From Spirochaetaceae bacterium (GTDB taxonomy: Bacteria > Spirochaetota > Spirochaetia > Treponematales > Rectinemataceae), in assembly GCA_025356015.1 (NCBI GenBank), contig JANXYO010000077.1, positions 1 to 63,943 of the forward strand: 63,943 nt of DNA, given 5' to 3'. The notes beneath the pieces are model-generated. The model ran no database searches. It had not been told where the DNA came from and saw only the letters and a list, made by a program, of their open reading frames with translations. This document shows, piece after piece, positions 24,063 through 28,317 of this stretch; the first letter of the stretch is position 1; every line of letters starts with the position of its first letter. The position numbers and the translations under genes were made by a program.

Positions 24063-24965
24063 CTAGGCTGAGACGGCCGAGAGGAGGGAGAGGATCTCGG
24101 CGTTCTTGAAGAGGCTTGCGTATTTGCGCGCCGAAAGGCCGAGCTTGTCGCCAAGGTCAGGGTCGGCTCCATGATTGAGGAGGAGAGCGACCATCTGGGG
24201 GTCGTTCCGGCCGACACAGACGATGAGGGCGGTCTGGCCGTCCTTGCTCGAGATGTCGGGGTGGGCGCCCCGGGAAAGGAAGAGCTCCATGAGCTCGACC
24301 GATCCGACCAGGGCGGCATCCATCAGGGGCGAGTAGCCCCGGTCGTCGCTGCGCAGGTCGAGGGCCGCCCCGCGGTTGAGGAGGATCTCGGCCACGGCCT
24401 TCCGGCGGTTGCGCGTGGCGAGGCAGAGGAGGGTGACACCGTGCCTGTCGCGGGAGTCGGGATGGAAGCCAGAACGGAGGAAGAGCTCGACGGCCTCGAG
24501 GTCGCCTTCCTTTACGCAATGCGCCAGGGATTCGGCATGGTAGGAGATTCCGCGCGTGAGGAGGGCGGCCCGCGTCGACTGCCTCTCCTGCCTGACCACC
24601 CACTCGGCCTGCTCGCTCTGGTAATAGGCGGCCAGCTCGTCGAGGGTATCGATGATGGGCAGGTTGGCGAGGTAGGGCGGGGGGCTGAAGCCCGGATCGA
24701 GCCTGAAGAAGGCGATGCCGTTCATGCGCCCGTTGGCGTAGCCGGCCGCGTAGGCGAACCAGGTCGTCGCGACACTCGTCGGCGTCGAGACGATCAGGTA
24801 GTGGCTCACCTTGCCCAGGTGGGCCGAGAGGCGGTCCCGGCGGAGCTCGCTCCAGCCCTCCCCGATCTTCAGGCCGTAGGCCGAGACTTCGGCCGCGGCG
24901 AGGGTCTCGAGTATCTTGATGAGATGCCCTCCGTCCTTGGGGGAAGCGATCACCGCAACCTTCAC
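24063..24965 (-). CDS. Ankyrin-repeat protein with TIR-like N-terminal domain
   Basis: 300 residues. Residues about 1-125 form an alpha/beta domain reminiscent of TIR/SEFIR-type folds: VKVAVIASPKDGGHLIKILE as first strand and helix, a YGLKIGEGWSE loop, VSHYLIVSTPTSVATTW, and WFAYAAGYANGRMNGIAFFR. This resembles the strand-helix order of bacterial TIR-like domains that read SxxSxxSxWxxxExxxA, but the catalytic Glu expected for an NADase is not obvious. Residues about 165-300 are four to five ankyrin repeats (DRHGVTLLCLATRNRRKAVA, RGYSPLMDAALVGSVELMEL, DGQTALIVCVGRNDPQMVAL). The GTG start at 24965 overlaps the DnaE stop as GTGA. Ankyrin part sure, TIR-like part tentative. Confidence 0.75.
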   Translation of the reverse strand: MKVAVIASPKDGGHLIKILETLAAAEVSAYGLKIGEGWSELRRDRLSAHLGKVSHYLIVSTPTSVATTWFAYAAGYANGRMNGIAFFRLDPGFSPPPYLANLPIIDTLDELAAYYQSEQAEWVVRQERQSTRAALLTRGISYHAESLAHCVKEGDLEAVELFLRSGFHPDSRDRHGVTLLCLATRNRRKAVAEILLNRGAALDLRSDDRGYSPLMDAALVGSVELMELFLSRGAHPDISSKDGQTALIVCVGRNDPQMVALLLNHGADPDLGDKLGLSARKYASLFKNAEILSLLSAVSA

Positions 24966-27900
24966 GCCGCTCCGTCCTGGTCCGGCCGATTGAGGCCGTA
25001 AGCCTCCTCGACATGGAGGGACAGGGCACCGAATTCGCTCCTGACGATCCCTACAACGAGGATGGCTGTATTCCATTCTAGTGTCGGCAGGGTCCGGGCG
25101 TAGGCTTGAGGGAAAAGGACGGTCTCGAAAAGCCCCGTCTCATCCTCGAATGTGTAGAAGGCCATCGTCTTGCCGTCCTTCGAGAGTACCTCCTTTCCCG
25201 CTATCGCCGTTCCCGCCAGAGAGACCCTGCGGCCCTGGAGGCCGGCGAGGGAGGAGGAGGGAACGGGAGGGGGCAGATTGTGGCGGTTCGCGACGAGGCT
25301 CGCCCTCCCGGCGAAGAGGGAGGCGGGAATCCGCGACACGACGAGGCCAAGGAGCCTGGCCTCGTCGGCCAGCTTGACCGAGGCCGAATAGTCCTTGACC
25401 CCGGCCGGGGCCCGCCAGGCCTCGTCCAGGAGCTCCACCTGGAGCGAGGCCCCCGCGGGCTCGCGGACGCGGAGACGATGGAGGGCCCAGAGGCTCTCGG
25501 GCCGCGTCAATGGGCGCGATTCCTCTGACGCGCCCATTGACTGCAGAATCTCCGCTTCCCCGTTTGGCGGAGATTCTGCCCCGGAGCCGGGGCGCCCCGA
25601 AGCCTGGGTGGCGTCCATTGACGCGGCCGCGCAAAGGCCGTCGAGACAGCCCGAACGCACGAGGGAGCGCGCCTCGTTGAGGGAGGGCCTGCAGCGCAGG
25701 TAGAAATCCTCGAGGGAGAGGAAGGGGCCCGAGGCCTCGCGCGTGGCGAGGAGGCGGTCCAGGAAGGGCCGGGAGAGCCCGGAGACCTGCATCAAACCCA
25801 CCCGCAGCGCCCCCTCCTCGACACGGTAGCCATAGCCGCTGCTGTTCACATGGGGGCTCAGGACCTCGAGGCCGAGGCGGCGGGCCTCGCCGACATAGGC
25901 CTGGGTGCCGTAGAAGCCCCCCCCGTTGTTGATGACAGAGGCGATGAAGAAGCCCGGGTAGTGGGCCTTCATCCAGGCGAGGCGGTAGGAGACCAGGGCG
26001 TAGGACGCCGAATGGGCCTTGCAGAAGGAATAGCCCTCGAAGGAGAGCATCATCTCCCAGAGCTCGTCGGCATCGAGCCTGGGGACGGCGTGCCCGGCAC
26101 AGCCGGCAAGGAAGCGCTCCCTGAAATCCTGCAGTTTGGTCCCCTTCTTTTTCTTGGTGAGGACCTTGCGCAGGCCGTCGGCCTCGACGGCGCCGAAGCC
26201 CGCTGCCGCCATCGCGACCCGGGAGACGTCCTCCTGGTAGACAATGATGCCGAGGGTCTCCTCAAGTGTCTTCTCGACGGTGGCCGGGAAGCGGCGCCAG
26301 GACCCGCCGTGAAGCCGCCTCACGTACTCGTTTATGTACTTGTTCGCTGCCGGACGGATGATCGAGCTCGCGACGACGAGCCTGCGGTAGTCCACCATCC
26401 CCATCTTGAGGAGGAGCTGGCGCGTGGCGGGCGACTCGATGTAGAAGACCCCCATGCTCTTGCCCGCCTCGACGAGGTCCCGGGCGGCCTTGTCCTCTGC
26501 GGCGCCGGGGAAGTCCCAGGCGAGGGCCTCCCCGGGAGGGCGCGCCGCGTTGGAGAGCTCGATGCAGTCGCGGAGCACGGCGAGGGAGCGGTTGCCGAGG
26601 ATGTCGATCTTGACAAGGCCGGCGCGCTCGGTGCCGTCCTTCTCCCAGGCGAGGACGGGGAGGCCAGAGGGCGAGGGCTGGACGTGGGTATAGTCGGTGA
26701 TGGGAAGCGGGGTGACGACGATGCCGCCGGGGTGCATGCCGATGTAGCGGGGCATGCCGTGGACCATGCGGGCGAGGCGGCGCAGCTTGGGCGGCAGCTC
26801 GTCGGCCCTGCCGACGCGGTAGGCGAGACGGGCGGCTTTGAGGTCCTTCTCGTTCATGCCAAGTGCGAGGGCCGACTCCCTGATCGCGCCGAGGTCGGAG
26901 AAACCGCAGTGGTCTGCGACCATGGCCGCCCTGCCCTCGTAGTCGCGGAAGACCGCGGCGAGGACGCCGGGGCGCTCGTCCCAGGGGAAGTCGATGTCGA
27001 TGTCGGGGGGGTCGGTCCGCCCTTCGTTGAGGAAACGCTCGAAGAAGAGCTCGTGCTCGAGCGGATCGACGTGGGTGAGCGCGAGGAGGTAGGAGACCAG
27101 GCTCGAGGCCGCGCTCCCCCGGCCGCAGGTGCGGGGGCAGCGAAGGACTATGTCGCGCACGACGAGGAAGTAGGCCGAGAAGCCCTTGTCGCGGATGATG
27201 CGCAGCTCGCGCTCGAGGCGGGCCGCGAGCTCGGCGCGCGCCCTGCCGGCTGGCCCGAAGCGACGGTCGATGCCTTCGAGGCAGAGGGAGCGGAGCAAGC
27301 GGAAGGATTCCTCGTCGCTCATGCCCTGGTAGGCGGGAAAGACGGGGGGGCTTGCGAAGAATGTTCCCGCCGCCTCGGCCTCCTCGGCGAGGGAGGCTGC
27401 GTTCGCCTGGGCCTCGGGGAAGGCCGAGAGGAAGTCGGCTGCCCGGGATGAGGGGACGAGGAGGGCACCAGGGGGATCGGCGAGGCCCTCGCGCTCGATG
27501 GCGGCGAGGCTCCGGCGCTCCTCGATCGAGCGGGCGAGGCGCCAGAGCTCTGAGTCAGCGGCGTCGACGAAGCGGGCCTGGTGCTCGGCAAGGATCGGCA
27601 GGGAAAGCTCGCGAGCCAGACGCGAGGTGGAGACCTGGGGCGTGCCGAGGGGGAGGCCGGCGTAGAGGAGGCCTCGCCCGGCGAGGCGGCGAAGGACCTG
27701 GGGGGACTCGGCGGAGAGGGCAAGACCCTCCCAGCCGCCCTCGGCGAGGTCGGCGAGGGGGTCGTAGCCCCCTTGCGCCCCTGCGCAGCCGGGAGCCGCG
27801 GCTTCGCGCCTCCTGTGCCTCGGTCCCTGGACGGCGAAACGCCCTTCCCCCTCCCCGGCCGCAGCATGGCCTTCGGCAAGGAGGAGATTGCCCGTCTCGT

Positions 27901-28279
27901 CATATCCGGCCGTCTCCTCCAGCAGGAGCTCGCGCGGGAGCCTCTGCCTCCGCCGGGGGACCTCGACGGCGAGGACCCTGCTTAAGATCGCACAGAGCCT
28001 GGAAAAGCCGCCTCGGTTCAGACAGTAGGCCCGCAGGGCGATGCCGCCGGTCTCGATCGATGCCCCGGCGAGGGCCTTGATGCCTGCAGCCGCGGCTGCA
28101 TCGACGAGCTCGGGGAGGCCGTAGAGGTTGTTCGAATCGGCGAGGGCTATCGCGTTCCAGCCCTGCCGGGCAGCGGCCTCGGTCAGATCGGCGGGCGATC
28201 TGGCCCCGTCCATGAGGGAGTGCCAGGAACGCCCTCCCAGGAAAGGGAGGGCCGAGGGGGATGGGGCCAAAGGCGTCAT
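24962..28279 (-). CDS. dnaE: DNA polymerase III alpha subunit, DnaE (second/short type, DnaE2-like)
   Basis: About 1105 residues. It has an N-terminal PHP domain (LPFLGGRSWHSLMDGARSPA, WNAIALADSNNLYG) and a C-family palm with catalytic acids in DPPDIDIDFPWDER. Next come VYQEDVSRVAMAAAGF and SYCK-type EGYSFCKAHSASYALVSYR, then helix-hairpin-helix and an OB-fold (VSLAGTAIAGKEVLSKDGKT, YTFEDETGLFETVLFP). The short PHP-to-palm region and overall length resemble DnaE2/ImuC-type translesion enzymes more than a replicative DnaE, but no imuA/imuB is adjacent. An in-frame 129-base palindromic element lies at 25500-25628. ATG 28279 is preferred over 28288 because the promoter predicts an mRNA 5' end near 28283. 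Confidence 0.9.
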   Translation of the reverse strand: MTPLAPSPSALPFLGGRSWHSLMDGARSPADLTEAAARQGWNAIALADSNNLYGLPELVDAAAAAGIKALAGASIETGGIALRAYCLNRGGFSRLCAILSRVLAVEVPRRRQRLPRELLLEETAGYDETGNLLLAEGHAAAGEGEGRFAVQGPRHRRREAAAPGCAGAQGGYDPLADLAEGGWEGLALSAESPQVLRRLAGRGLLYAGLPLGTPQVSTSRLARELSLPILAEHQARFVDAADSELWRLARSIEERRSLAAIEREGLADPPGALLVPSSRAADFLSAFPEAQANAASLAEEAEAAGTFFASPPVFPAYQGMSDEESFRLLRSLCLEGIDRRFGPAGRARAELAARLERELRIIRDKGFSAYFLVVRDIVLRCPRTCGRGSAASSLVSYLLALTHVDPLEHELFFERFLNEGRTDPPDIDIDFPWDERPGVLAAVFRDYEGRAAMVADHCGFSDLGAIRESALALGMNEKDLKAARLAYRVGRADELPPKLRRLARMVHGMPRYIGMHPGGIVVTPLPITDYTHVQPSPSGLPVLAWEKDGTERAGLVKIDILGNRSLAVLRDCIELSNAARPPGEALAWDFPGAAEDKAARDLVEAGKSMGVFYIESPATRQLLLKMGMVDYRRLVVASSIIRPAANKYINEYVRRLHGGSWRRFPATVEKTLEETLGIIVYQEDVSRVAMAAAGFGAVEADGLRKVLTKKKKGTKLQDFRERFLAGCAGHAVPRLDADELWEMMLSFEGYSFCKAHSASYALVSYRLAWMKAHYPGFFIASVINNGGGFYGTQAYVGEARRLGLEVLSPHVNSSGYGYRVEEGALRVGLMQVSGLSRPFLDRLLATREASGPFLSLEDFYLRCRPSLNEARSLVRSGCLDGLCAAASMDATQASGRPGSGAESPPNGEAEILQSMGASEESRPLTRPESLWALHRLRVREPAGASLQVELLDEAWRAPAGVKDYSASVKLADEARLLGLVVSRIPASLFAGRASLVANRHNLPPPVPSSSLAGLQGRRVSLAGTAIAGKEVLSKDGKTMAFYTFEDETGLFETVLFPQAYARTLPTLEWNTAILVVGIVRSEFGALSLHVEEAYGLNRPDQDGAA
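25500..25628. repeat. 129-bp palindromic element inserted in frame within dnaE
   Basis: Bounded by perfect 14-bp terminal inverted repeats (GGCCGCGTCAATGG at 25500-25513, CCATTGACGCGGCC at 25615-25628). Inside are two further perfect 13-bp inverted repeats (25506-25518 with 25529-25541; 25543-25555 with 25567-25579) and a 7-bp one (25578-25584 with 25587-25593). It is exactly 43 codons long and adds a low-complexity segment (SMDATQASGRPGSG and onward) between CLDGL and RPESLWALHR, where DnaE proteins normally run straight on. It resembles the protein-coding palindromic elements known from Rickettsia. Confidence 0.75.
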
Positions 28280-28317
28280 ACTATACATCAGTATAGTACT
28301 TCGGCCGTCGTGGGCAA
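28279..28317 (-). promoter_or_regulatory. dnaE promoter with overlapping palindromic operator
   Basis: Minus-strand TTGCCC (28312-28317), 16-base spacer, TATACT (28290-28295). The -10 hexamer lies inside a perfect inverted repeat with 8-bp arms, TACTATAC-TGAT-GTATAGTA (28279-28298). This is the classic layout for a repressor site blocking RNA polymerase; LexA or another damage-response repressor is a reasonable guess for a DnaE2-like gene. The start codon at 28279 would be within about five bases of the mRNA 5' end. Confidence 0.65.

What the first reader, a model, noticed from the sequence alone, without database searches (positions are those of the whole stretch)
25500..25628. In-frame palindromic mobile element inside a DNA polymerase gene
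Seen: 129 bp with perfect 14-bp terminal inverted repeats and two nested perfect 13-bp inverted repeats, a multiple of three, open in the dnaE frame. It adds about 43 low-complexity residues between the helix-hairpin-helix and OB regions. Known: Rickettsia palindromic elements insert in frame into protein genes in the same way. Inference: a similar coding-compatible element family exists in this lineage, and the protein tolerates it as a surface loop.
Basis: partly seen in the sequence, partly recalled or inferred. Interest (0 to 1): 0.8.

Follow-up and report, generated by a model that had tools for sequence, protein, structure and literature searches.

The report
Self-copied palindromic insert in polymerase gene
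A DNA-polymerase gene of an uncultured spirochaete carries an extra 33-residue loop built of DNA hairpins; one hairpin arm is the gene's own conserved sequence copied backwards, so it looks like a replication slip made on the spot rather than a jumping element, and a related genus shows the same kind of insert elsewhere in the same gene.

Summary
The palindromes are real, but the 129-bp 'element' is not what it seems. It lies in a Pol III alpha (DnaE-type) gene on the minus strand. All 100-odd homologues examined lack it. The net gain over the closest ones is 33 codons (99 bp), not 43. The 'right terminal repeat' is the gene's own conserved ...PLTRP... coding sequence. The two other copies are inverted duplicates of it (13 bp exact; 18 bp with one mismatch), with an unrelated 13-bp hairpin between them. 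No second sequence copy exists in this genome or in 293 other genomes of the order, so it is not a dispersed, RPE-like family. The closest relative, from another genus, has an independent in-frame insert in the same gene, 60-odd codons upstream, with the same architecture: conserved host codons, inverted copy, GCAGA..TCTGC hairpin, 18-bp inverted copy. It too is single-copy. Best explanation: in-situ palindrome growth by replication template switching, tolerated because the segment is a disordered linker (AlphaFold pLDDT below 50). A mobile element that duplicates its target in inverted orientation is not excluded. The mechanism is inferred: no same-genus allele without the insert was available.

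The parts
24962..28288 (-). Pol III alpha-subunit gene (error-prone DnaE / DnaE2-like, 1108 aa) that hosts the insert; PHP, alpha NTPase, finger, HHH and OB domains present
   Evidence: fold matches Pol III alpha structures; invariant catalytic-region motifs PDIDIDFPWDER and KID kept
25500..25518 (-). Arm A3: host coding sequence for R925-PLTRP-930, conserved in homologues; serves as right 'terminal repeat' and as outer arm of hairpin 1
25519..25528 (.). Loop of hairpin 1 (10 nt)
25529..25541 (.). Copy A2: exact 13-bp inverted copy of host arm A3
25543..25579 (.). Hairpin 2: arms GCAGAATCTCCGC / GCGGAGATTCTGC, loop 11; no source found nearby or elsewhere
25580..25610 (.). GC-rich spacer with a weaker hairpin around GGGGCGCCCC
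25611..25628 (.). Copy A1: second inverted copy of host arm A3 (18 bp, one mismatch), joining the 5' side of the host gene through a GGCC/GGCCGCG overlap
25514..25633 (-). Codons 886-925 (40 residues) that replace a 7-residue linker of the nearest homologues: net insertion 33 residues / 99 bp; residues 893-920 modelled with pLDDT below 50

Best explanation
The segment is a lineage-specific in-frame palindromic expansion made on the spot. During replication or repair the growing strand jumped at a short overlap (GGCC/GGCCGCG) to the neighbouring strand and copied the adjacent PLTRP codons backwards, then returned (template switching or fold-back synthesis). Further events inside the resulting palindrome added a second inverted copy and another hairpin. 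Versions that kept the frame were tolerated because they fall in the flexible linker between the HHH and OB domains. Shown: the host arm is ancestral, the other copies are its inverted duplicates, the insert is unique and in frame, and the same architecture arose separately in dnaE of another genus. Inferred: the polymerase mechanism, the order of events and the tolerance of the protein.
For: The host arm encodes PLTRP, conserved in homologues without the insert. Inverted copies of it lie 10 nt and about 93 nt away; a match that long to the adjacent 39 nt arose in 3 of 20,000 simulated inserts. No other copy in the whole genome or in 293 other genomes of the order. In G001 the same gene has a unique in-frame insert whose two ends are an exact 18-bp inverted copy of the conserved ALRVGL codons (0 of 20,000 simulations) and which joins the host at a GAG overlap. 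The blueprint scan of 1.82 Mb of this genome and 0.35 Mb of relatives found these two dnaE loci plus one repeat-array region, and none in shuffles. Long perfect hairpins exceed Markov expectation in both samples. Template switching is documented to create perfect hairpins in one event (PMC8794818) and multi-residue changes in coding genes (PMC8604942). AlphaFold leaves residues 893-920 disordered.
Against: About 65 nt of the insert (hairpin 2, spacer, loops) has no local source, so simple switching does not explain all of it. Hairpin 2 begins GCAGA and ends TCTGC both here and in G001, and GCAG-type second hairpins recur at two other loci of this genome, which hints at something shared. No allele from the same genus was available, so the pre-insertion sequence is inferred from homologues at 54-75% identity.
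Confidence: 0.58

Rival explanations
1. A mobile double-hairpin element family, RPE-like or like mitochondrial double-hairpin elements, that diverges fast in stem sequence and on insertion generates an inverted duplicate of its target as hairpin 1; only the stem base of hairpin 2 (t/tc + GCAGA...TCTGC) stays recognisable.
For: Same order and spacing (hairpin 1, 1-2 nt, GCAG..CTGC hairpin) at dnaE here, G001 dnaE, and two gene-end loci of this genome, L289:8780-8855 and L292:19016-19092. GCAG hairpins next to another hairpin 6/23 against 12/332 for control words, although the motif was noticed on part of the same data and leaving those out gives p of only 0.046. Recurrence in dnaE of two genera.
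Against: No sequence copy anywhere, while a true dispersed palindrome in a Nitrospira DnaE was found in several copies by the same test. No consistent target duplication: the only direct repeat, CGCGGCC, would imply a 125-bp, out-of-frame insert. Hairpin 1 at L289 and L292 was not shown to be host-derived.
Confidence: 0.22
2. The structure is selected at the mRNA level: a strong hairpin stack that slows translation between domains, stabilises the message, or is bypassed by ribosomes as reported for palindromes in yeast mitochondria.
For: RNA fold z -7.2, and -8.3 for the G001 insert.
Against: Not conserved in position or presence among homologues. The insert keeps the frame, which bypassing would not need. 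Strong folding follows automatically from palindromes.
Confidence: 0.07
3. An ordinary transposon-derived miniature element (MITE) with 14-18 bp terminal inverted repeats that has lost its relatives.
For: Terminal inverted repeats and a size of about 129 bp.
Against: One 'terminus' is ancestral coding sequence; single copy; no fitting target-site duplication; net gain 99 bp, not 129.
Confidence: 0.06
4. Assembly or amplification artefact of the metagenome (fold-back chimera).
For: The genome is a 150-contig draft, and fold-back chimeras are known from strand-displacement amplification (own knowledge).
Against: Net length is a multiple of three with an open frame through a full-length gene; several partly diverged copies are present; an independent assembly (G001) shows the same architecture in the same gene.
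Confidence: 0.05

Closest known systems
Template-switch (quasipalindrome) mutations
   Same: Reverse-complement copy of an adjacent sequence, short overlap at the junction, near-perfect arms, no dispersed copies
   Different: Larger and multi-step: two inverted copies plus an extra hairpin of unknown origin, in frame, 99 bp net
Rickettsia palindromic elements (RPE; RPE-4 and RPE-6 occur in Rickettsia DNA polymerase III alpha, PMC3767692)
   Same: About 100-150 bp palindromic in-frame insert in a protein gene, even the same kind of gene; predicted to be surface-exposed or disordered
   Different: RPEs are dispersed sequence families shared by orthologues; this one is single-copy, species-specific, and one arm is host sequence
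Double-hairpin / repetitive hairpin elements of mitochondrial genomes
   Same: Two adjacent hairpins 1-2 nt apart
   Different: Those are multicopy and mostly in non-coding DNA; here single-copy and coding
Coding palindromes of nematomorph mitochondrial genes (PMC6649704)
   Same: Inverted repeats embedded in conserved coding sequence, gained and lost dynamically, template switching proposed
   Different: There both arms encode conserved protein; here only one arm is ancestral
MITEs
   Same: Short, terminal inverted repeats
   Different: No copies, no target duplication, one repeat is host sequence

Membership tests
Rickettsia-type palindromic elements | Palindromic, about 100-150 bp | tested here: met
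Rickettsia-type palindromic elements | Inserted in frame in a protein gene | tested here: met
Rickettsia-type palindromic elements | Repeated sequence family dispersed in the genome | tested here: not met
   positive control with a Nitrospira palindrome
Rickettsia-type palindromic elements | Orthologues in related species carry the insert at the same site | tested here: not met
MITE | Terminal inverted repeats belonging to the inserted DNA | tested here: not met
   one arm is conserved host coding sequence
MITE | Direct target-site duplication | tested here: not met
   the only flanking direct repeat, CGCGGCC, is inconsistent with the 99-bp in-frame gain (sequence)
MITE | Transposase of a parent element in the genome | not tested
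   no search was made for a matching transposon
Template-switch mutation | Inverted copy of immediately adjacent ancestral sequence | tested here: met
Template-switch mutation | Short overlap at the switch point | tested here: inconclusive
   GGCC/GGCCGCG here, GAG in G001 (sequence); no same-genus pre-insertion allele
Template-switch mutation | Whole insert accounted for by local templates | tested here: not met
   hairpin 2 and spacer have no local source; so a single simple switch is excluded and several steps would be needed
Double-hairpin elements | Two adjacent hairpins | tested here: met
Double-hairpin elements | Multiple mobile copies | tested here: inconclusive
   no sequence copies; a few structurally similar loci

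The most novel reading that the evidence does not exclude
A new type of parasitic or self-propagating DNA in these spirochaetes whose first hairpin is made from the target itself: insertion leaves an inverted rather than a direct duplication of about 18 bp of host codons around a core hairpin with a t/tc-GCAGA...TCTGC base, and it lands in frame, preferentially in the polymerase alpha-subunit gene.
Probability: 0.14. Interest if true: 0.82.

Novelty: new variant of a known kind. Interest (0 to 1): 0.5.

Why it matters
In-frame coding palindromes in bacteria are usually filed as mobile elements. Here the host arm can be recognised by conservation, and two independent cases in one gene suggest that large in-frame additions can grow from the gene's own sequence. 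If so, part of the 'palindromic element' literature may describe locally made expansions, and a polymerase gene linker offers a testable hotspot: Rickettsia and Nitrospira alpha subunits also carry palindromic inserts.

Tried and rejected
(1) Sequence family in own genome, relatives, plasmids and phages: nothing beyond chance. (2) Rfam: no match. (3) Word searches with CGTCAATGG and CAGAATCTCCGC: no extra elements. (4) Another double hairpin, in flhB (L182), first looked like the same event with a 'recoded' copy; relatives show that its repeat IDLQWF..IDLQWF and part of the hairpin are ancestral, so it was dropped. (5) A duplicated udk 3' end (L221), where three of three differences are synonymous, is lineage-specific but has a direct, not inverted, far copy. 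(6) H1 of L289 lies in a non-conserved uxaC tail, so target origin could not be shown. (7) An automatic alignment of the double hairpins was too gappy to build a covariance model. (9) IMG/VR matches to the hairpin-2 arms are scattered and look like chance or ordinary palindromes.

Full report
What is there. The protein has PHP, alpha NTPase, finger, HHH and OB domains, scores with alpha subunits and error-prone DnaE, and its model matches Pol III alpha structures. The genome holds a second, longer dnaE, and close homologues are MAGs of Spirochaetales/Spirochaetaceae. The inverted repeats exist as described and the segment folds far better than shuffles.

What the insert really is. Alignment with homologues shows that every other sequence lacks it. 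The nearest ones have a 7-residue linker (e.g. CLDGL-PARAGGE-PLTRPQALWALHR), where this gene has 40 residues: net 33 codons, 99 bp. The sequence PLTRP at the 3' side is conserved (LTRP even in Nitrospira), and ACGCGGCC is identical in G001. Hence the 'right terminal repeat' (25500-25518) is host DNA. The arms at 25529-25541 and 25611-25628 are inverted copies of it. The two 'nested' palindromes are therefore one independent hairpin (25543-25579) and one hairpin that uses the host arm.

No dispersed family. BLAST of the segment finds only itself in the whole genome, nothing convincing in 98 relatives at a loose cut-off and nothing in 293 other genomes of the order; plasmids, phages and Rfam are negative. 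The test works: a palindromic in-frame insert in a Nitrospira DnaE (L146) is found at several places of its genome.

The same architecture elsewhere. A structural scan for adjacent strong hairpins gave a handful of loci per Mb and almost none in shuffles. One lies in dnaE of G001, a different genus: host arm GAGCCCCACCCGGAGCGC (the complement of conserved ALRVGL codons), loop TGC, inverted copy, tc, GCAGATGC-TGC-GCATCTGC, spacer, three 48-nt units, and a final exact 18-bp inverted copy of the host arm. It is in frame, about 50 residues, at residue ~826, absent in others, and unique in its genome. A scan for the full blueprint in 1.82 Mb of this genome, 0.35 Mb of relatives and 0.98 Mb of other loci returned only these two dnaE genes and one low-complexity repeat region, with none in shuffles. 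Chance hardly gives such inverted matches to the flank: 3/20,000 and 0/20,000 simulations. Given about one such locus per 1.8 Mb here, and about ten close orthologues looked at, a second hit in the same gene has a chance of the order of 1-2%; this is a rough estimate, because little of G001 could be read.

How it most likely arose (inference). A strand that jumps to the neighbouring strand at a short overlap and copies back yields exactly an inverted copy of adjacent codons. G001 shows this in its simplest form: GAG overlap, 18-bp perfect arms, 3-nt loop. Additional rounds in the unstable palindrome add partial copies and tandem units. Template switching is known to create perfect hairpins in one step and to change coding genes (PMC8794818; PMC8604942), and it has been proposed for coding palindromes in mitochondria (PMC6649704). 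Selection keeps only in-frame outcomes; the model leaves residues 893-920 disordered. What is not explained is the origin of hairpin 2 and the spacer, and the shared GCAGA...TCTGC base of hairpin 2 in the two dnaE inserts, with GCAG..CTGC at L289 and L292 (p = 0.0004 with all data, 0.046 without the loci that suggested the motif). This leaves room for a mobile element with an inverted target duplication.

Comparison with the known. RPEs of Rickettsia are the nearest by effect: RPE-4/RPE-6 sit in Rickettsia DNA polymerase III alpha, and different RPE groups occur near each other at different positions (PMC3767692). The defining feature, a dispersed family, is not met here. It works like a coding-compatible palindromic insert, but it is not a member of that family. 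Because a single simple template switch does not account for the whole insert, it is described as multi-step growth by that kind of mechanism, not filed as one template-switch mutation.

Verdict. A real, lineage-specific, in-frame palindromic expansion. Mobile-family interpretation not supported; in-situ templated growth favoured at about 0.58.

Noticed in passing
L246:636-818 (G001:C48): dnaE of the closest relative carries an independent in-frame palindromic tandem insert (three 48-nt units) with 18-bp inverted host arms, at residue ~826.
   Followed up: yes
L146:5569-5649 and L123:2831-2911: DnaE of two Nitrospira MAGs carries an in-frame palindromic insert (LSLSPAGRGWGEG) in the HHH-OB linker; other copies lie elsewhere in one of the genomes.
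   Followed up: partly
L221:8453-8552 (G000:C125): 3' end of a udk-like gene is duplicated (GDSEFKY* twice; three differences, all synonymous) with an inverted copy between; relatives lack the second copy.
   Followed up: partly
L289:8780-8855 and L292:19016-19092: Two more double hairpins with the same order and spacing and a GCAG..CTGC second hairpin, at the end of uxaC (stop codon in the loop) and upstream of a ribosome-binding site.
   Followed up: partly
L202:15143-15303: A tRNA-Leu(taa) gene is followed at once by an inverted copy of its T-arm (16-bp perfect arms) and a large branched palindrome.
   Followed up: no
L266, L269, L271, L275: flhB start regions in this family carry a repeated IDLQWF(V/A)A motif whose DNA (GTGGTTCG..CGAACCAC) forms a hairpin next to the conserved FlhB start; the number of repeats varies by species.
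   Followed up: partly
L186:11911-12184 and L289:9050-9300: Arrays of short palindromic units of the form CGTGAATTTCACG between genes.
   Followed up: no
L345:6318-6357 (IMG/VR contig): A viral gene (helicase-like by eye) contains an 18-bp perfect coding palindrome ACAGAATCTCCGCCAAAT..ATTTGGCGGAGATTCTGT that shares 16 nt with hairpin 2 of the window; probably chance.
   Followed up: no
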